DNA from: Ignavibacteriales bacterium
GTDB taxonomy: Bacteria > Bacteroidota > Ignavibacteria > Ignavibacteriales > Melioribacteraceae
Length of the DNA: 32,662 nucleotides
Direction of reading: 5' to 3'
NCBI GenBank assembly: GCA_003599395.1
Contig: QZJX01000036.1
Location: forward strand, 1-32,662
Part shown: positions 4,066 through 11,980 of the stretch, piece by piece
Position numbering within the stretch: position 1 is the first letter of the stretch
How the letters are laid out: each line of letters begins with the position of its first letter
Program-made: the position numbers and the translations under genes
The notes under the pieces: model-generated
Database searches by the model: none
What the model was told of the DNA's origin: nothing
Seen by the model: the letters and a program-made list of their open reading frames with translations, nothing else

Positions 4066-4848
4066 TTAACTTTTGCAAGCGATTGAAAGATTTGTGATCA
4101 AGTCTAATGTTTCTGAATAAATATTATCATTTTCAGAAAGTGACTTCACAACAGCACTTCCAACAATAAATCCATCTGTATACTCTCTAAATTCTTTTAT
4201 GTTCTGGGGAGAAGAAATTCCAAATCCTAGCATCATCTTATTTTTGGAAATGATATTATAAGTTCTCTCGAGATTATGTTTTACCTCATCACCGAAATTA
4301 TTTTGCACGCCTGTTGTTCCTGTTACACTTACGCAGTAAATGAATCCCGTACTTAATTCATCTATTTTTTTAATTCTTTCTTCCGATGAAGTTGGAGTGG
4401 TTAGCATTATTATCTCAAAATCTTTGAATTTATTTGTGAAAAAATCTTCATATTCTTCAAGAGGAATATCGGGAATTATTAATCCATCTACTTTTGCTTC
4501 CTTTGCATCACGAATAAATTTATCAACTCCATATCGCATAATTGGGTTAGCATAACCCATAAGTATTATAGGTTTTTCAACTCTTTCTTTTATATTCGCG
4601 GTCATTTCAAGAACGGAGCTGAGTGAAACACCATTCAACAAAGCTGCTTCCGAAGATTTTTGAATCGCAGGTCCATCTGCTAGCGGATCGCTGAATGGAA
4701 TTCCAAGTTCGATTAAATTCGCTCCGGCTTCGTAAACTTTGCATACCAAATCAACGAAAGAATCGACTTTGGGATAACCGGCTGTTAAATAAATTGATAA
4801 TGCTTTTTGATTATTATCATTAATTTTTTCAATAGTTTCTCTTATCAT
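4066..4848 (-). CDS. trpA: Tryptophan synthase alpha chain
   Basis: Cleaves indole-3-glycerol phosphate to indole and glyceraldehyde 3-phosphate, passing indole to TrpB. It is 260 aa. Seen: [11 protein letters not shown] at the N-terminus, the catalytic Glu/Asp segment [52 protein letters not shown], and the phosphate-binding GFGISSP and GFIVGSAVV. The ATG overlaps the trpB stop by 4 nt (ATGA). It is the last gene of the operon; no clear intrinsic terminator follows in the 78 nt before the DinB-like gene. Confidence 0.97.
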
Positions 4849-6056
4849 ATTTCTTCACCGATATTTTTCATAATAGTATTAATATCTTTATCACCGCGTC
4901 CGCTAATATTTATCACAACAATGTCATCTTTTTTTGTCTTCGGCATCAATTCATTCAAATAAGCGACTGCGTGAGCCGTTTCAAGAGCGGGAAGTATTCC
5001 CTCAGTTTTTGTCAGCAGTTTAATTCCTTCAAGAGCTTCATCATCCGTAACGGAGTAGTACTCTGCACGTTTAATATCTTTTAGTAATGCGTGTTCCGGA
5101 CCGACACCGGGATAATCTAATCCGGCTGAAATAGAATGAACTTCGGAAATCTGTCCGTTATCATCCTGCAGAAGATAAGTATGCATCCCTTGGAAAATTC
5201 CTTGAGAGCCAACAGTTAAAGTGGCACAGTGTTTACCCGAATCAATTCCATAACCTTCGGCTTCAACGCCGATTAATTTAACCGATTCATCATTTACAAA
5301 AGGATAAAATATTCCGATCGCATTCGAACCGCCGCCGACACAAGCGAGAATGTGAGTCGGTAATCTATTTTCTTTTTCTTGCAACTGCTGTTTTGTTTCT
5401 TCACCGATAACCGATTGAAAATCTCTAACAATCATCGGATAAGGATGGGGACCGACAACTGAACCTATGATGTAATGAGTATCATGCACGTTGGTCACCC
5501 AATCACGAATGGCTTCATTTGTTGCATCTTTCAAAGTTCTGCTTCCCGATTTAACTGTTCTAACTTCAGCACCAAGCAGTTTCATCCTAAACACATTTAA
5601 ACTTTGGCGTTCAACATCAACTTCGCCCATATATACGATACACTTCAATCCGAACTTTGCACAGACAGTAGCAGTTGCAACGCCGTGTTGACCGGCACCG
5701 GTTTCCGCAATGATTCTTTTCTTGCCTAACTTCTTTGCTAAAAGAATTTGTCCTATAGCATTATTTAATTTATGAGCTCCGGTATGGCAAAGATCTTCAC
5801 GCTTCAAATAAATTTTACCTTTACCGAAATGTTCGGTTAATCTTTTTGCATACGTGAGTGGGGTAGGTCGACCGTTATAATCTCTCTGAATTTCACTTAA
5901 CTCTTTTAAAAAGTTATTATCTGTTCGCAACTCATGATACATGGTTTCCAATTCATAAAGAGCCGTCATTAAAGTTTCCGGAACGAACTTACCGCCGTAA
6001 ATTCCGTATTTACCTTTTTCATTTGGAAAAGCATATTTAGATTTTTGTTCATTCAT
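4845..6056 (-). CDS. trpB: Tryptophan synthase beta chain
   Basis: A PLP enzyme that condenses indole with serine; 403 aa, type-1 TrpB (trpB1) by its length and motifs. Seen: [47 protein letters not shown] with the PLP lysine, [17 protein letters not shown] with the catalytic Glu, and the phosphate-binding [12 protein letters not shown]. It also has GVEAEGYGI and a C-terminal ISGRGDKDI. Its ATG shares one base with the aroF stop (TAATG), which implies coupling to the DAHP synthase gene, and its end overlaps trpA. Confidence 0.97.
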
Positions 6057-7072
6057 TATGCTAGCTCCTTTCCGACTATAGGAGCGAGTTCTTTTATTTT
6101 TTCTAATAATGTTTTAAATCTTTTCGGATCGAGTGATTGGTAGCCATCGGATAATGCCTCATCCGGACGTTGATGTACTTCGATCATTAGTCCGTCAGCA
6201 CCGGCGGCAATTGAAGCCAAAGCCATCGGCGGAATTTTATCCCACATCCCCACACCGTGGGAAGGATCAACAAAAACGGGCAAGTGACTTTCTTTTTTAA
6301 GCACGGGAACAGCATTTAAATCAAGTGTGTTTCGTGTAGCTGTTTCAAAAGTTCTGATACCTCGTTCACATAATATGATATTATAATTATCTTGTGAGAT
6401 GATGTACTCGGCACTCAACAGCAAATCTTCAACCGTGGCAGACATACCGCGCTTGAGCAGAATCGGTTTTTGTGTCTTGCCGGCTTCTTCGAGCAATGTA
6501 AAGTTCTGCATATTACGTGCGCCAAGTTGAATTATATCAGCAACTTCTGCAACTGCATCAACCGTATGTTGATTTAAAAGTTCCGTGACAATCTTTAAAT
6601 CAAATTCCTTTTTGACCTCTTCGAGATATTTTAATCCCTCTTCCTTCAATCCTTGAAATGAATACGGACTTGAACGGGGCTTATAAGCACCGGCTCGTAA
6701 AAAATTCACACCCATATTTTTCAAGATTTCTGCTATTTCAAAAATCTGATCGCGTGATTCTACTGAACAAGGTCCGGCGATGATTTGCAGTTTGTTTCCA
6801 CCGATGGACTGATCACCGAAATCAATAATTGTATCTTCGCTTTTCATCATTCGCGAGACGAGTTTATATTTCTTTGTTACTCTTACAACGTCTTCAACTG
6901 AAGGCATCAAACTGAAATCCTCTTGTTTTAATTTATGAGTTGGGCCTGTAATTCCGATTGCGAGTTTCGAAGCACCGGGGATTTCGTGCGGCGTGCAATC
7001 CAATTGCTTAATTTTCTGTTTTACTTTTTCTATGTCCTCACGCGGTGCATTCAAATCCATTACTATCAACAT
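6056..7072 (-). CDS. aroF: 3-deoxy-7-phosphoheptulonate (DAHP) synthase, type I-beta with N-terminal regulatory domain
   Basis: Condenses PEP and erythrose 4-phosphate, the first step of the shikimate pathway. It is 338 aa. Residues 1-70 form a ferredoxin-like N-terminal domain as in the Thermotoga-type enzyme, which is known there to mediate aromatic feedback. The barrel shows [81 protein letters not shown] and [14 protein letters not shown]. The gene sits inside the trp operon between trpF and trpB and is coupled to trpB by TAATG. An AAGGAA motif precedes the ATG. Which amino acid inhibits it cannot be told from the sequence. Confidence 0.94.
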
Positions 7073-7110
7073 TGATGATTCCTTAGTTTATTGATGACTA
7101 ATTCTTTATG

Positions 7111-7195
7111 GAATACAGATGACACAGAAAAAACTGATTCTCGCAGATTTTTATCTGTCTAAACCCATAGTTTCTGCGTCATCTGCGTTCTATTC
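7111..7195. repeat. Interspersed inverted repeat that overlaps the trpF stop codon
   Basis: The trpF-aroF spacer is almost filled by an imperfect inverted repeat. The left end reads GAATACAGATGACACAGAAA (7111-7130); the right end reads, reverse complemented, GAATAGAACGCAGATGACGC then AGAAA, differing by a 5-base insertion and one substitution. The inner part includes CTCGCAGATTTTTATCTG. It resembles the CAGATGACGCAGA-type repeats I recall from many environmental genomes (memory, not a search). On the minus strand the TAG stop of trpF (7192-7190) is part of the repeat end. Confidence 0.7.
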
Positions 7196-7798
7196 TTTTA
7201 GCATATCTAATTTTTTAAAGAATGATTTAACTTTTGCGTGATCTTTTATTCCCGGTGCTTTTTCAAGAGATGAAGAAAGATCAACCGCCTGCGGTTTAAT
7301 TCTGTTAAAAATATCGTCGATATTGTTTTCGGAAACTCCGCCGGCTAAAATGATTTTGTCCCGATAAATTTCCGGAATGAGTTCCCAATCAAATTGTTTT
7401 CCCGTTCCGCCGTATTCTCCGTTATCTTTTGAGTCAAGTAGAATTGTATAGTTTGAATATTTTTTAAGGTTCTCATTCAATTTCTCATCAACTCGAATTG
7501 CTTTAATAACGGGGTGATTTATTTTTTCACAGTAATCCAAACTTTCATCACCATGTAATTGAACAGCATTTAAACCGATATTTTTCGAAGTGGAATTAAC
7601 GTTTTCAAAATTTTCATTTACGAATACACCAACTTTTGAAACAAAGAAGGAAAGATTATCTATTATCTTTTTAGCATTATCCGGTTCGATGTATCGTTTA
7701 CTTTTTTTATAGAAGATAAAGCCAAGTGCATCCGCGCCGCAGTCAATGCAAAGTTTTGCATCGTCTATATTTGTTATTCCGCATACCTTAACTTTCAC
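7190..7798 (-). CDS. trpF: Phosphoribosylanthranilate isomerase
   Basis: An Amadori isomerase of tryptophan synthesis, 202 aa, (beta/alpha)8 barrel. Seen: VKVCGITNIDDAKLC with the catalytic Cys, GADALGFIFYKKSKRYI, VQLHGDES, the catalytic Asp in LLDSKDNGEYGGTGKQFDW, ILAGGVSENNI and AVDLSSSLEKAPGIKD. The start is GTG at 7798, at the conserved N-terminus, overlapping the trpC end by 11 nt. The stop codon lies in an interspersed repeat, so the extreme C-terminus (DMLKE) may have been reset by that insertion. It is a separate gene, not fused to trpC as in enterobacteria. Confidence 0.95.
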   Translation of the reverse strand: MKVKVCGITNIDDAKLCIDCGADALGFIFYKKSKRYIEPDNAKKIIDNLSFFVSKVGVFVNENFENVNSTSKNIGLNAVQLHGDESLDYCEKINHPVIKAIRVDEKLNENLKKYSNYTILLDSKDNGEYGGTGKQFDWELIPEIYRDKIILAGGVSENNIDDIFNRIKPQAVDLSSSLEKAPGIKDHAKVKSFFKKLDMLKE

Positions 7799-8582
7799 GA
7801 TTGCACCAATCTTTAAATTTTCTTAGTTCATCTGAAATATTTTCCGCTCGCATAAAATGTTCGCCGACTAAGAGAGCATCGATTTTCTCATTCTTAACTT
7901 TGTCGACAGAAGTTTTATCACTAAATCCGCTTTCCGCGACAACACAAACATTTCTCGGAATTTGTTTGCATATGTCGATTGAATTATTGATGTCAACTTC
8001 AAAAGTTTTGAGATTACGATTATTTATTCCAACTATATTATGAATCTCGAAATCAACTTTATTTAATTGTTCTTCCGAGTGAAGTTCAAGAAGCACTTCT
8101 AAATTTAATTCGTTTGCAGCGTGTGTTAATTCTCTTACTTGTTCTTCGGATAAAATTTCACAAATTAAAAGAATAACATCTGCCCCGTTTGCTTTTGCTT
8201 CGTACACTTGATATTCATCAATTATAAAATCTTTACGGAGAAGGGGAGCAGATTTGATTTTTGCAATGCTGTTTAAGTATTCTATCGAACCTTTGAAAAA
8301 GTTATTATCTGTTAAAACAGAGATTCCGGAAACTTCGTTTTCAAAATAAATTTTTGCAATATCTGTGTGATTAAAATTTTCTCTAATAATTCCTTTTGAC
8401 GGAGATGCTTTTTTTATTTCTGCAATGATTGAAAGGTTTTTGTCGGAAGAAATTCTTTTATGCAAACTCATTGGTTCACTTTCAAAAAATTGAAAATCCG
8501 AAAAACGAGACAGCGTAAATTCCTTCCGAAGTTTTTTTACTTCTTCTTTTTTTACTTCGACTATTTCATCAAGAATTGTCAT
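7788..8582 (-). CDS. trpC: Indole-3-glycerol phosphate synthase
   Basis: Closes the indole ring from CdRP; 264 aa, single-function barrel. Seen: ILDEIVEVKKEEVKKLRKE at the N-terminus, the substrate-binding IIAEIKKASPSKG, ISVLTDNNFFKGS, LLRKDFIIDEYQVYEAKANG with the catalytic Lys, LEVLLELHSEE, VGINNRNLKTFEVDI, CVVAESGFS and LLVGEHFMRAE. The start overlaps the trpD stop as ATGA and the end overlaps trpF by 11 nt, so the trpD-C-F block is tightly coupled. Confidence 0.96.
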   Translation of the reverse strand: MTILDEIVEVKKEEVKKLRKEFTLSRFSDFQFFESEPMSLHKRISSDKNLSIIAEIKKASPSKGIIRENFNHTDIAKIYFENEVSGISVLTDNNFFKGSIEYLNSIAKIKSAPLLRKDFIIDEYQVYEAKANGADVILLICEILSEEQVRELTHAANELNLEVLLELHSEEQLNKVDFEIHNIVGINNRNLKTFEVDINNSIDICKQIPRNVCVVAESGFSDKTSVDKVKNEKIDALLVGEHFMRAENISDELRKFKDWCNRES

Positions 8583-9598
8583 TTGTGCTTCTCACCGAAT
8601 TCTTTTAACTCATTTAACTTATTTAAAGTAGCCCCGGATTTTATCGACTCTTCAGCAATATTTTTACATTCTGATAAATCATCTGATATGCCGGAAGTTT
8701 TTAATGCCATTGCAGCATTTGCAGCGACAACCTCATATGCTGCCCCGTTAGTTTCACCAGAAAAAACTTTATATATTATTTCTGCATTCTCTTTAGCCGA
8801 ACCTCCTTGAAGCTGTTCGAGAGTTGCTTTCGGGTAACCGAAGTTTTCGTTCGTCAATGAATAGAAATACATTGAATGGTCACGATTAACTTCGTAAACT
8901 TTTGTTATGTCGGTAAGTGTAATTTCATCATATTGATTGCTTGTGCAGAGAAATGCAACTTTTTCCATTTCCAATAATCTGATAGCATCGGTCATTAATC
9001 GGGCAACATCATCATTGAATGTTCCGATTAACTGGCGCTTAACTCCGGCTGGATTTGTAAGCGGACCGAGTATATTAAAAATTGAGCGGAACTCTAATTC
9101 TTTTCTTATCGGTGCAACATGTTTCATTGCGGGATGATATAGAGGTGCAAACAAGAATGCAATTCCGATTTCGTTCAAAGCTTTTTCGGAAAGTTCAGGA
9201 TTCAACTGCACATCAACACCGAGTTCGTGAAGTACATCCGAACTACCGCTTTTACTTGAAATAGAACGGTTGCCGTGTTTTGCAACACTTACTCCTGCAC
9301 CGGCAACAACAAATGAAACGGCGGTTGAAATATTAAACGTTCCAGAGCCGTCTCCGCCTGTACCGCATACGTCGATTACTCTTTCGTTTTCACATTTAAT
9401 CTTAATCACTTTTTCGCGCATTGCCTTTACGAAGCCTGCAACTTCTTCAGAAGTTTCACCTTTTATTTTAAGTGCAGTTAAAAGAGAAGCAATTTTTGAA
9501 TTGTTTTCATTGCCGCTCATTATAGAATACATAACTTCGTAAGCTTCATCGAATGTTAAGTTATGTCCTTCAATTACTTTTTCTAATTCTGCTTTCAT
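8579..9598 (-). CDS. trpD: Anthranilate phosphoribosyltransferase
   Basis: Transfers phosphoribose from PRPP to anthranilate. Seen: the N-terminal helical domain with LTFDEAYEVMYSIMSG, the PRPP glycine loop VIDVCGTGGDGSGTFNIST, VAKHGNRSISSKSGSSDVLH, FLFAPLYHPAMKHVAPIRKE and FNILGPLTNPAG. I take the ATG at 9598 (339 aa), which overlaps the trpG stop as ATGA, rather than the in-frame TTG 12 nt upstream at 9610; no homologue-like residues are lost. It is a separate gene from trpG, unlike the enterobacterial fusion. Confidence 0.95.
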   Translation of the reverse strand: MKAELEKVIEGHNLTFDEAYEVMYSIMSGNENNSKIASLLTALKIKGETSEEVAGFVKAMREKVIKIKCENERVIDVCGTGGDGSGTFNISTAVSFVVAGAGVSVAKHGNRSISSKSGSSDVLHELGVDVQLNPELSEKALNEIGIAFLFAPLYHPAMKHVAPIRKELEFRSIFNILGPLTNPAGVKRQLIGTFNDDVARLMTDAIRLLEMEKVAFLCTSNQYDEITLTDITKVYEVNRDHSMYFYSLTNENFGYPKATLEQLQGGSAKENAEIIYKVFSGETNGAAYEVVAANAAMALKTSGISDDLSECKNIAEESIKSGATLNKLNELKEFGEKHK

Positions 9599-10161
9599 AG
9601 TTCCAACCAATTTTTAATTAGATTATTACCTTGTGGAGTTAAAACCGATTCTGGATGAAATTGAATTCCTTCTATCGGGTATTCTTTATGTCGAATTCCC
9701 ATTATTACATTATCACTTGTATGGGACGTTATTATTATATCATCTGATAGTGAATGATTTTTTATTGCGAGTGAATGATAACGTCCAGCTTCAAAATTTT
9801 GCGGAATGTTCTTATAAATACTTTGATTATCGTGAATAATTGTTGATGTTTTGCCGTGCATTAAAGTAGGTGCGTTTGTTACTATCCCGCCGAATGTTAT
9901 TCCAATTGCTTGATGACCGAGACAAACACCGAGTATTGGAATTTCTTTTCCCAATTCTTTTATTACATCGAGAGAAATTTTGGAGTCTTCCGGTTTACCG
10001 GGACCGGGGGAGATTACAATTTTATCAACATCCATTTTGCGAATCTCACTAACCGTTGTTTTGTCGTTTCTTTTTACGATAATATCGTTCGTAAAACTTC
10101 CGATAAGTTGAACGAGATTAAACGTAAACGAATCATAATTATCTATTACTAATATCTTCAT
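9595..10161 (-). CDS. trpG: Anthranilate synthase component II (glutamine amidotransferase)
   Basis: Supplies ammonia to TrpE. Seen: MKILVIDNYDSFTFNLVQLI, the ISPGPGKPEDS oxyanion loop, the nucleophile motif GVCLGHQAIG, MHGKTS, and the His-Glu pair in GIQFHPESVLTPQG. The start is ATG 10161, which gives the canonical MKILVIDNYDS N-terminus and has AGAGGA just upstream; the longer TTG start at 10176 adds only MQRTW. It overlaps the trpE 3' end by 23 nt. In some bacteria this subunit also serves aminodeoxychorismate synthase; that cannot be judged here. Confidence 0.95.
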   Translation of the reverse strand: MKILVIDNYDSFTFNLVQLIGSFTNDIIVKRNDKTTVSEIRKMDVDKIVISPGPGKPEDSKISLDVIKELGKEIPILGVCLGHQAIGITFGGIVTNAPTLMHGKTSTIIHDNQSIYKNIPQNFEAGRYHSLAIKNHSLSDDIIITSHTSDNVIMGIRHKEYPIEGIQFHPESVLTPQGNNLIKNWLEL

Positions 10162-11620
10162 CCAAGTCCTCTGCAAACTTTAACGCTTTCTTTAATGCGG
10201 CTGATTTATTTTGAATTTCATAGAATTCATTTTCAGGAATACTGTCGGCTACAATTCCAGCTCCGGCCTGCCAATAAATTATCGAACCTTTTGAAAAGAG
10301 TGTACGTATTGCAATGCACAAATCTAGATTGCCGTTAAAGTCAATGTAACCGACTGCACCGGCATAAACATTACGAATTAAATTTTCGTATTCATTTATT
10401 AATTGCATTGCTCTTATTTTTGGTGCACCGGTAACTGTTCCGGCGGGAAAGCTTGCTTTGAGTGCATCGATACAGTCTTTATCTTTTTGCAATTTACCCG
10501 CAACTCTTGAAACGATATGCATAACGTGAGAGAATCTGTTTACTTTCATATTTTCTGTAATATTTATTGAACCGTAATCACATACTCTGCCGAGATCGTT
10601 TCTTGCTAAATCGACAAGCATTGTATGTTCTGCAATTTCTTTTGGATCGGAAAGTAAATCTTTTTCTAATTCGATATCTTCTTCTAAAGTTTTTCCTCGT
10701 TTGCGTGTACCGGCGATTGGCAATATTTCAGCGGTTCTATTTTTTACTTTTAACAAATCTTCCGGCGAAGTCCCGATTACGACTTTCGATTCCGGAAATT
10801 CCATATAATACATATAAGGCGAAGGGTTGATGATTCTAAGTGCACGGTAAACATTCAGTAAGTCGCCTTCGAATTCTGTGTTGAATCTCTTTGATAAAAC
10901 TATTTGAAATACATCGCCATTGTATATGTTTTCTTTTGCTTTTGTAACAAATTTTTCGAAATCTGATTTGTCTTCTTCAAAGTTCGGTTCATTTATGATT
11001 TTGAATGATTCGGAATATTCAACTGTTTTTAATAATTGTTTATGAAGAAGATCAATTTCTTGATTAGCTTCTTTAAATAATTGTTCGATATTGGAATCAT
11101 CTTCAACAAATACATTGCTGATTAGAATTATCTGATGTTTATAATGATCGAATGTCACAATGTTTTTATAAATTCCGAATATTGAATCTGGGGAATCGTA
11201 ATCTTTTTCACCGGTGAAATTCAGAACGTCTTCAATTAATGCAATGTTTTCATAACCAAAATAACCAACAATACCACCACTGAAATCGGGCAAATCATCA
11301 ATCTTGGCGCAATTATATTTTTTGATCAAAGATTGTAAATAATCGAGAATGTTTTCTTTACGCGATTCGATTTTATTTTCGGTTGTAATAGTTAATTCAT
11401 TCCCTACGTTTGAAATTATTTGATGTGGATTCTTTCCAATGAAAGAATAACGCGCAAGTCTACCGATACCTTCAACAGATTCAAGAAGAAATGATGATTC
11501 ACTTAACGTACGCAGTTTTATATAAGCTAATACCGGTGTAAGTAAATCAGCAGTGATTCTTTTGTAAACCGGAATTACATTATGTTTTTGTGCCAGTATT
11601 TTAAATTCTTCAATTGTCAT
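10139..11620 (-). CDS. trpE: Anthranilate synthase component I
   Basis: Converts chorismate to anthranilate, the committed step; 493 aa. Seen: the N-terminal Trp-binding segment SSFLLESVEGIGRLARYSFIG and the partner segment NPSPYMYYMEF, both part of the known feedback-inhibition site, so allosteric control by Trp is expected. Catalytic-domain motifs are FQIVLSKRF, GTSPEDLLKV, LPIAGTRKRG, DPKEIAEHTMLVDLARND, SFPAGTVTGAPKIRAM and the C-terminal GAGIVADSIPENEF. The ATG lies shortly after the attenuator terminator. Control is therefore predicted at two levels, attenuation and feedback. Confidence 0.97.
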   Translation of the reverse strand: MTIEEFKILAQKHNVIPVYKRITADLLTPVLAYIKLRTLSESSFLLESVEGIGRLARYSFIGKNPHQIISNVGNELTITTENKIESRKENILDYLQSLIKKYNCAKIDDLPDFSGGIVGYFGYENIALIEDVLNFTGEKDYDSPDSIFGIYKNIVTFDHYKHQIILISNVFVEDDSNIEQLFKEANQEIDLLHKQLLKTVEYSESFKIINEPNFEEDKSDFEKFVTKAKENIYNGDVFQIVLSKRFNTEFEGDLLNVYRALRIINPSPYMYYMEFPESKVVIGTSPEDLLKVKNRTAEILPIAGTRKRGKTLEEDIELEKDLLSDPKEIAEHTMLVDLARNDLGRVCDYGSINITENMKVNRFSHVMHIVSRVAGKLQKDKDCIDALKASFPAGTVTGAPKIRAMQLINEYENLIRNVYAGAVGYIDFNGNLDLCIAIRTLFSKGSIIYWQAGAGIVADSIPENEFYEIQNKSAALKKALKFAEDLDEDISNR

Positions 11621-11631
11621 TTAATATCCAT

Positions 11632-11671
11632 ATAACAAAAAACCCTTCCCAGTGCTGGACTGAGAAGGGTT
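11632..11671 (-). terminator. trp attenuator: intrinsic terminator between trpL and trpE
   Basis: On the minus strand, a 13-bp stem with one G-U pair (arms 11671-11659 and 11653-11641), a 5-nt CCAGC loop and a run of six T ending at 11636. It lies between the trpL stop (11696) and the trpE ATG (11620), so it cannot end another operon and must act as a leader attenuator (arms 3 and 4). Confidence 0.9.
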
Positions 11672-11748
11672 CTTAAAATTTTTATTTGCTCAGTTTTACA
11701 CAGGAGTCCCGCATGTTTTATTAAACCAAAACCAAGCCCATGTAAAAC
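11659..11748 (-). promoter_or_regulatory. Alternative RNA pairings of the trp leader (protector and antiterminator)
   Basis: On the minus strand, arm 1 is GTTTTACA (11748-11741), next to the first Trp codon. Arm 2 is TGTAAAAC (11700-11693), containing the leader stop codon, and pairs perfectly with arm 1 over 8 bp. The overlapping ACTGAG (11694-11689) can pair with CTCAGT (11664-11659), the inner half of the terminator 5' arm. These are the three exclusive pairings of classical attenuation: 1:2 protector, 2:3 antiterminator, 3:4 terminator. The 2:3 helix is short (6 bp), and its strength was not computed. Confidence 0.75.
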
Positions 11749-11776
11749 CGAAATATGTATTTTTGTTCTTCATCAT
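11696..11776 (-). CDS. trpL: trp operon leader peptide, 26 aa with Trp codons 13, 15 and 17
   Basis: A short frame beginning MMKNKNTYFGFTWAWFWF and ending TCGTPV before TAA. Three Trp codons in five positions is far above chance, and the frame lies between the promoter and the attenuator of the trp operon. Role by analogy with known trp leaders: a ribosome stalled at Trp codons when charged tRNA-Trp is scarce would cover arm 1 and favour the antiterminator. There is no Shine-Dalgarno sequence. Two tandem ATGs (11776 and 11773) lie only 8 nt after the promoter element, so a leaderless start is likely. The peptide has no other known function. Confidence 0.88.
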   Translation of the reverse strand: MMKNKNTYFGFTWAWFWFNKTCGTPV

Positions 11777-11784
11777 GTTGACTG

Positions 11785-11816
11785 CAAAGATAGAGAATTA
11801 ATCTCTTTTTTGTCAA
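11785..11816 (-). promoter_or_regulatory. trp operon promoter (TTGACA - 18 nt - TATCTTTG)
   Basis: On the minus strand, TTGACA at 11816-11811 and TATCTTTG at 11792-11785 are separated by 18 nt. TATCTTTG fits the Bacteroidota TAnnTTTG element read by the short RpoD of this group, a homologue of which is encoded at 17653-18513. Transcription should begin around 11781-11777, that is at or within a few bases of the trpL ATG. Confidence 0.75.
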
Positions 11817-11885: not shown

Positions 11886-11957
11886 GCCGTCCACTGAAGT
11901 GGACGGCAATAAAAATCAAAATCTCTCTTCATTATTGCCGTCGCTTTTAAGCGACGG
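11886..11957. repeat. REP/BIME-like pair of hairpins
   Basis: Hairpin 1: GCCGTCCAC (11886-11894), TGAA loop, GTGGACGGC (11899-11907), 9 bp perfect. Hairpin 2: CCGTCGCTT (11938-11946), TT, AAGCGACGG (11949-11957), 9 bp perfect. In addition GACGGCAATAA (11902-11912) and TTATTGCCGTC (11932-11942) form an 11-bp inverted repeat joining the two, so the units face each other as in BIMEs. The position is intergenic, between the aminotransferase 3' end and the trp promoter. A RAYT-type transposase would be the expected mobiliser elsewhere in the genome; none is in this window. Confidence 0.75.
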
Positions 11958-11980
11958 ACAACTAAAACCACAAAAACATT

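What the first reader, a model, noticed from the sequence alone, without database searches (positions are those of the whole stretch)
11632..11816. Complete ribosome-mediated attenuator in front of a Bacteroidota-like trp operon
Seen: a promoter, a 26-codon leader with Trp at positions 13, 15 and 17, an 8-bp protector pairing (11748-11741 with 11700-11693), an overlapping 6-bp antiterminator pairing (11694-11689 with 11664-11659) and a 13-bp terminator with a T run, all before trpE. The leader stop codon lies in arm 2, as in the enterobacterial design. Established: this logic is best documented in proteobacteria. I do not know of a described case in this lineage, so it may be an independent or under-reported example. 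Phe codons also cluster among the Trp codons.
Basis: partly seen in the sequence, partly recalled or inferred. Interest (0 to 1): 0.82.

Follow-up and report, generated by a model that had tools for sequence, protein, structure and literature searches.

The report
Tryptophan attenuator with switched antiterminator
In front of the tryptophan-making genes of this Ignavibacteriales bacterium sits a real tryptophan-sensing attenuator of the classical kind, and across its whole order the RNA switch appears to hold the operon open in an unusual way, by pairing with the loop and far side of the terminator hairpin instead of its near side.

Summary
In detail: promoter, 26-codon leader with Trp at 13, 15 and 17, protector hairpin, terminator, then trpE. 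All 90 intact trpE genes examined in the order (Ignavibacteriales) have a Trp-rich leader and terminator at this place. Ribosome-mediated attenuation is therefore well supported. It is not new for the wider phylum: Rfam RF01692 (Bacteroid-trp) and F. psychrophilum transcriptomics already report such leaders. RF01692 does not match here.

The order-wide, covarying pairing is arm 2a, at the leader stop codon, with the terminator's loop plus 3' arm: 87% of cells paired against 26-46% when slid; 55 double changes against 16 by shuffling; genus-level p 1.6e-3 to 2e-5. Arm 2b with arm 3 nests inside it in most loci. Trp leaders in other Bacteroidota, his leaders in this same order, and E. coli trp favour the textbook 2:3 pairing in the same pipeline. 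The leader AUG lies about 4 nt (at most 9) from the predicted transcription start. All of this is from sequence; no experiment was run. Verdict: a new variant of a known kind.

The parts
11785..11816 (-). Promoter: TTGACA (11816-11811), 18-nt spacer, TATCTTTG (11792-11785), Bacteroidota TAnnTTTG type; predicted +1 near 11780
   Evidence: TAnnTTTG spans -12 to -5 in F. psychrophilum (PMC9723704). A TTG[AG] box plus a TAnnTTTG-like box was found at 82 of 90 order loci.
11696..11776 (-). Leader peptide ORF MMKNKNTYFGFTWAWFWFNKTCGTPV, predicted 5' UTR about 4 nt
   Evidence: A Trp-rich leader is present in all 90 intact order loci.
11726..11740 (-). Control codons Trp13 (11740-11738), Trp15 (11734-11732), Trp17 (11728-11726)
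   Evidence: Relatives mostly have WWW or WWWW here.
11737..11752 (-). Arm 1 of the protector hairpin (pairs with 11704-11689)
   Evidence: Arm 1 x region 2: window z -4.5; order mean z -1.76; native better than the swapped mean in 89%.
11698..11710 (-). Arm 2a, outer half of the antiterminator (pairs with loop and 3' arm 11655-11647 and with 11643-11639)
   Evidence: Order-wide covariation.
11689..11694 (-).
   Evidence: 2b:3 pairing is supported in family f3 (82% against 42-60% slid), not clearly in f1.
11659..11674 (-). Arm 3, 5' arm of the terminator
   Evidence: 3:4 pairs 94.4% of cells, 9 of 14 pairs with double changes.
11654..11658 (-). Terminator loop; its 3' end joins arm 2a in the alternative structure
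   Evidence: the loop end and first arm 4 bases (TCAC) are conserved in much of the order.
11638..11653 (-). Arm 4, 3' arm of the terminator, running into the T run
10139..11620 (-). trpE, first gene of the controlled operon
   Evidence: TIGR00564, 532 bits, above the curated cut-off.
4066..10176 (-). Rest of the operon: trpG, trpD, trpC, trpF, DAHP synthase (6056-7072), trpB, trpA
   Evidence: NCBIfam matches.

Best explanation
This is a ribosome-mediated tryptophan attenuator. RNA polymerase starts about 4 nt before the leader AUG, so a ribosome loads at the very 5' end. If charged tRNA-Trp is scarce, the ribosome stalls at Trp13, 15 or 17 and covers arm 1, leaving arm 2 free. Arm 2b pairs with the upper part of arm 3 as it emerges, and arm 2a pairs with the terminator loop and then with the start of arm 4. 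This nested helix delays or prevents the terminator, and trpE-A is transcribed. [quoted passage not shown] Without translation, arm 1 pairs with arm 2 and the terminator forms. Shown from sequence: all elements, their order-wide conservation, and covariation of 2a:4 and 3:4, with 1:2 above shuffles and swaps. Inferred: transcription start, ribosome positions, the outcome of the kinetic competition, and response to tryptophan.
For: Trp-rich leader plus terminator at 90/90 intact trpE loci of the order. Leader folding z -5.1. Region 2 x (loop+arm 4): mean -12.3 kcal/mol, mean z -2.35 against dinucleotide shuffles. 2a:4 counted on an alignment: 86.9% paired, slid controls 26-46%; 55 double-change cells against 15.6 +/- 8.6 shuffled; covariation score reached by 0 of 500 shuffles. 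Genus-level association of changes: p 1.1e-4, 1.6e-3, 2.1e-5 for three columns, including both states inside genus f1g4. With 3:4 forbidden and a ribosome on the last Trp codon, the alternative is worth -14.9 on average; with the ribosome at the stop codon only -3.9; both 2a:4 and 2b:3 present in 83/90. For the window the figures are -13.7 to -16.7 and -2.0. In growing transcripts the alternative is the best fold, usually with 10 or more pairs, until arm 4 has emerged. Specific to this locus and order: other Bacteroidota trp leaders 2x3 z -2.60, 2x4 z -0.54; his leaders of this order 2x3 z -2.03; E. coli trp gives the textbook 2:3.
Against: No expression data. The full terminator is nearly always more stable at equilibrium (window -27.6 against -13.7), so antitermination must be kinetic, and the margin is smaller here than in E. 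coli: the terminator takes over when polymerase is 1 nt past arm 4 in the window, 7 nt in E. coli. In the window's own genus 2a:4 contains a bulge and its energy alone is not above shuffles (z 0.06). In roughly a tenth of loci 2a lies partly downstream of a ribosome parked at the stop codon (for example L075, L077, L078, L085). The order's sequences are related, so shuffle counts overstate significance; the genus-level test lessens this but does not remove it.
Confidence: 0.8

Rival explanations
1. A strictly textbook attenuator: the only antiterminator is the reader's 2:3 helix ACTGAG/CTCAGT, and the match of 2a to loop and arm 4 is a by-product of similar tandem hairpins.
For: The 6-bp 2:3 helix is exact in the window and forms first in growing transcripts. 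In family f3 a 2b:3 helix is supported.
Against: Over 90 loci 2x3 is no better than shuffles (z -0.29) while 2x(loop+4) is (z -2.33). 2a and arm 4 covary although they belong to different hairpins. By-product similarity would also predict arm 1 to pair with arm 3, and it does not (z +0.65).
Confidence: 0.12
2. Translation-coupled or trans-acting role: the terminated leader RNA or peptide acts elsewhere (as peTrpL/rnTrpL of Sinorhizobium), and the structures serve mainly RNA stability.
For: A leader starting almost at its AUG would be released as a tiny near-leaderless mRNA, as in S. meliloti (PMC7298713).
Against: Conserved Trp runs and alternative pairings point to cis control. The leader's other residues are not conserved outside each family.
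Confidence: 0.05
3. An ordinary intergenic terminator with a chance short ORF.
For: Terminators and short ORFs are common.
Against: 90/90 order loci and 26 of 40 sampled loci from other Bacteroidota families keep a Trp-rich ORF in front of trpE. Where the promoter is recognised the ORF starts directly behind it.
Confidence: 0.02

Closest known systems
E. coli trp attenuator (trpL; Rfam RF00513 Trp_leader)
   Same: Trp codons in a short leader ORF, protector 1:2, terminator 3:4, in front of trpE.
   Different: E. coli antiterminator is 2:3 only (recovered by the same script); here it is 2a:(loop+4) with 2b:3 nested. 5' UTR about 4 nt here. No Rfam match at gathering score.
Rfam RF01692 Bacteroid-trp (Weinberg 2010, PMC2864571)
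   Same: A Bacteroidota RNA motif in front of trp genes; the one Bacteroidaceae-type (f25) trpE upstream read here carries a WWW leader (L223).
   Different: Rings in 17 of 198 phylum genomes, all one family (f25), and not in this genome or the sampled members of its order. The promoter-to-AUG distance in the one f25 locus examined is longer (18 nt).
Leader-peptide attenuators of Flavobacterium psychrophilum (PMC9723704)
   Same: Transcriptome-based clues of leader-peptide attenuation in front of amino acid biosynthesis operons in the phylum.
   Different: Another class; the main text read gives no trp structure and no 2:4 pairing.
S. meliloti trpLE(G) attenuator (PMC7298713)
   Same: Leader mRNA starting at the AUG; Trp attenuator.
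   Different: Unrelated lineage; here a 5' UTR of about 4 nt is predicted rather than none.

Membership tests
Ribosome-mediated transcription attenuators (trp type) | Short leader ORF with a cluster of Trp codons directly in front of trp genes | tested here: met
   Trp13/15/17; conserved in 90/90 loci.
Ribosome-mediated transcription attenuators (trp type) | Intrinsic terminator between leader and first structural gene | tested here: met
Ribosome-mediated transcription attenuators (trp type) | Protector helix 1:2 overlapping control codons or broken by a ribosome on them | tested here: met
   in family f3 arm 1 lies upstream of the Trp codons, which sit in the loop.
Ribosome-mediated transcription attenuators (trp type) | Alternative helix that excludes the terminator and is available only when the ribosome stalls at control codons | tested here: met
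   -14.9 stalled against -3.9 at the stop codon, order means (predicted energies).
Ribosome-mediated transcription attenuators (trp type) | That helix is 2:3 (region II with region III, as in PMC1183508) | tested here: not met
   the conserved pairing is 2a with loop and arm 4; 2b:3 is accessory. The textbook subtype is not met; the mechanism class is not affected.
Ribosome-mediated transcription attenuators (trp type) | Read-through responds to Trp-tRNA charging | not testable with these tools
   Needs expression data.
Rfam RF01692 Bacteroid-trp | Match to the covariance model above its gathering score | tested here: not met
   no match, even with threshold E 10 on 351 bases.
Rfam RF00513 Trp_leader | Match above the gathering score | tested here: not met

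The most novel reading that the evidence does not exclude
An order-wide subclass of ribosome-mediated attenuator whose antiterminator does not hide the 5' arm of the terminator but invades it from the loop and 3' arm, using loop bases as a toehold, with a near-leaderless leader mRNA. It arose at the trp locus in Ignavibacteriales from a phylum-wide 2:3 attenuator.
Probability: 0.65. Interest if true: 0.62.

Novelty: new variant of a known kind. Interest (0 to 1): 0.5.

Why it matters
Attenuation textbooks give one geometry (2:3 against 3:4), which works because arm 3 is captured before arm 4 is made. Here homologous leaders at one locus seem to have switched partner within a phylum while the logic stayed, and a second attenuator in the same genomes (his) kept the old geometry. 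That gives a natural test of how much co-transcriptional order constrains RNA switches. It also shows that Trp attenuation with an AUG almost at the transcript's 5' end is widespread in Bacteroidota, which initiate translation without Shine-Dalgarno sequences and where such short leaders are otherwise rare (3.7% of 5' UTRs under 10 nt in B. thetaiotaomicron, PMC7366714).

Tried and rejected
One search used a wrong folding constraint (it blocked all pairing of both arms); its 'anti' lines are void and one search replaces them. A first attempt at the pairing statistics failed on a parsing error. The idea that Phe codons add Phe sensing was rejected: Phe is not clustered in most relatives' leaders. 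A genome-wide search for the promoter-plus-AUG arrangement found ten matches, of which only this leader was recognised as an attenuator; the others were not examined in detail. Ile/Leu/Val leaders in front of ilvB and Phe leaders in front of prephenate dehydratase genes were looked for and not seen. A control for promoter-to-AUG distance using long ORFs of the same loci returned no comparable promoters, so published UTR statistics served instead. Alternative 1:3 pairing tested and rejected (z +0.65). Vitreschak et al. 2004 and Lopatovskaya et al. 2010 on attenuation across phyla could not be read here; I recall from memory that the first lists some Bacteroidetes/Chlorobi cases, so priority for 'attenuation in this group' should be given to earlier work. 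No paper in the library holding Ignavibacter together with leader-peptide attenuation was listed.

Full report
WHAT WAS CHECKED. The window is contig C15 of a 2.45-Mb, 81% complete genome. Its nearest named relatives are Melioribacter and other Ignavibacteriales, placed by NCBI in Ignavibacteriota next to Bacteroidota and sharing the phylum-level group used by the genome search with Bacteroidota families. The leader folds far better than shuffles (z -5.1), and the genes behind it are trpE, G, D, C, F, a DAHP synthase, trpB and trpA.

CONSERVATION. TrpE was searched in 146 genomes of the order. The upstream DNA of 90 intact trpE genes (the window's own included) was read. All 90 carry a short ORF with clustered Trp codons, usually WWW or WWWW, and a strong terminator whose sequence is also largely conserved (AACCCTTCTYAGT-loop-CACTGRGAAGGGTTTTTT). 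The Phe codons of the window's leader are shared only by the closest four genomes.

STRUCTURE. Three pairings were tested over these loci. Arm 1 with region 2 (protector) is better than shuffles (mean z -1.76) and better than swapped partners in 89% of loci. Region 2 with the terminator loop plus 3' arm is strongly enriched (-12.3 against -7.7 kcal/mol, mean z -2.35). Region 2 with the 5' arm is not (z -0.44 with the loop included; z -0.29 without). On an alignment of 83 loci the eight pairs of 2a with columns 108-115 are paired in 86.9% of cells, against 26-46% when slid by 1-3 columns, with 55 double-change cells against 15.6 in shuffles. The terminator itself gives 94.4%. Examples of matching changes are CTCAGTGA/TCACTGAG, CCCGGTGAAT/ATTCACCGGG, CTTAGT/ACTAAG and CCAAGT/ACTTGG, and one genus shows both of the first two states. 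At genus level the changes remain associated (p 1.1e-4, 1.6e-3 and 2.1e-5 for three columns).

THE SWITCH. If 3:4 pairing is forbidden and a ribosome is placed on the last Trp codon, the best structure is a nested helix. Arm 2a pairs with loop and arm 4 outside, and arm 2b with arm 3 inside; both occur in 83 of 90 loci, with a mean of -14.9 kcal/mol. With the ribosome at the stop codon the alternative is worth only -3.9. In the window the values are -13.7 to -16.7 and -2.0. When the transcript grows with 8 hidden bases, as assumed for E. coli in PMC1183508, the alternative is the best fold until polymerase has moved past arm 4; the terminator then overtakes it, typically at +2 to +6 (window +1, E. 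coli +7). Antitermination must therefore rest on kinetics, more so than in E. coli. This is inference.

CONTRAST. The same approach on E. coli trp returns the textbook 2:3 helix. Trp leaders from 24 loci of other Bacteroidota families give 2x3 z -2.60 and 2x(loop+4) z -0.54, the reverse of Ignavibacteriales. His leaders, found in front of hisG in 13 of 14 Ignavibacteriales genomes that have hisG, favour 2:3 (z -2.03 against -1.27). So the partner switch appears specific to trp in this order. Loci from two other families of the same class (L192, L194) are mixed.

NEAR-LEADERLESS START. The TAnnTTTG box spans -12 to -5 in F. psychrophilum (PMC9723704). On that ruler the leader AUG lies at a median of 4 nt, at most 9 nt, from the predicted start in the 82 loci where both boxes were recognised, and at a similar distance in most other Bacteroidota leaders. 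Short 5' UTRs are rare in the phylum: 3.7% under 10 nt in B. thetaiotaomicron (PMC7366714) and 5.5% leaderless in F. psychrophilum. A leader beginning at its AUG is known for S. meliloti trpL (PMC7298713). The start sites here are predicted, not mapped.

WHAT IS KNOWN. Attenuation in this phylum is not new: RF01692 Bacteroid-trp (PMC2864571) rings in one family of the phylum sample, and leader-peptide attenuation was inferred in F. psychrophilum. A 2010 survey knew no leader-peptide systems outside Proteobacteria and Actinobacteria (PMC2965389). RF01692 and RF00513 do not match here. I know of no described ribosome-mediated attenuator whose conserved antiterminator uses the terminator's loop and 3' arm; this rests on my knowledge and limited searches.

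VERDICT. The antiterminator assignment is corrected to a bipartite 2a:(loop+4) / 2b:3 helix. It is best filed as a new variant of a known kind.

Noticed in passing
L233-L246 (upstream of hisG in Ignavibacteriales): His-rich leader peptides (for example MKNIPATYHLHHHHFNSKRAG) with a terminator in front of hisG in 13 of 14 genomes: his attenuators, favouring the classical 2:3 pairing.
   Followed up: partly
window 6056-7072 (-): A DAHP synthase gene lies inside the trp operon between trpF and trpB, so the attenuator would also control entry into the aromatic pathway.
   Followed up: no
window 11886-11907 and about 11937-11959: Two palindromes (GCCGTCCACTTCAGTGGACGGC and CCGTCGCTTAAAAGCGACGG) lie between the upstream gene's end and the trp promoter; the first has only two close copies elsewhere in the genome.
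   Followed up: partly
L088 (f3 genus g43): One order member has a different terminator and a clear 2:3 pairing (GTTCCGG with CCGGAAC), an apparent exception to the 2:4 design.
   Followed up: no
phylum-wide loci L192-L231: Trp-rich leaders, mostly with the AUG 4-8 nt behind the -7 box, occur in front of trpE in 26 of 40 genomes sampled from other Bacteroidota families, far beyond the reach of RF01692.
   Followed up: partly
family f3 leaders (for example L040, L070): Arm 1 lies in codons about 4-12, and the conserved motif T[GE][TS]Y of the peptide seems to be dictated by its pairing with arm 2; the Trp codons sit in the hairpin loop.
   Followed up: partly
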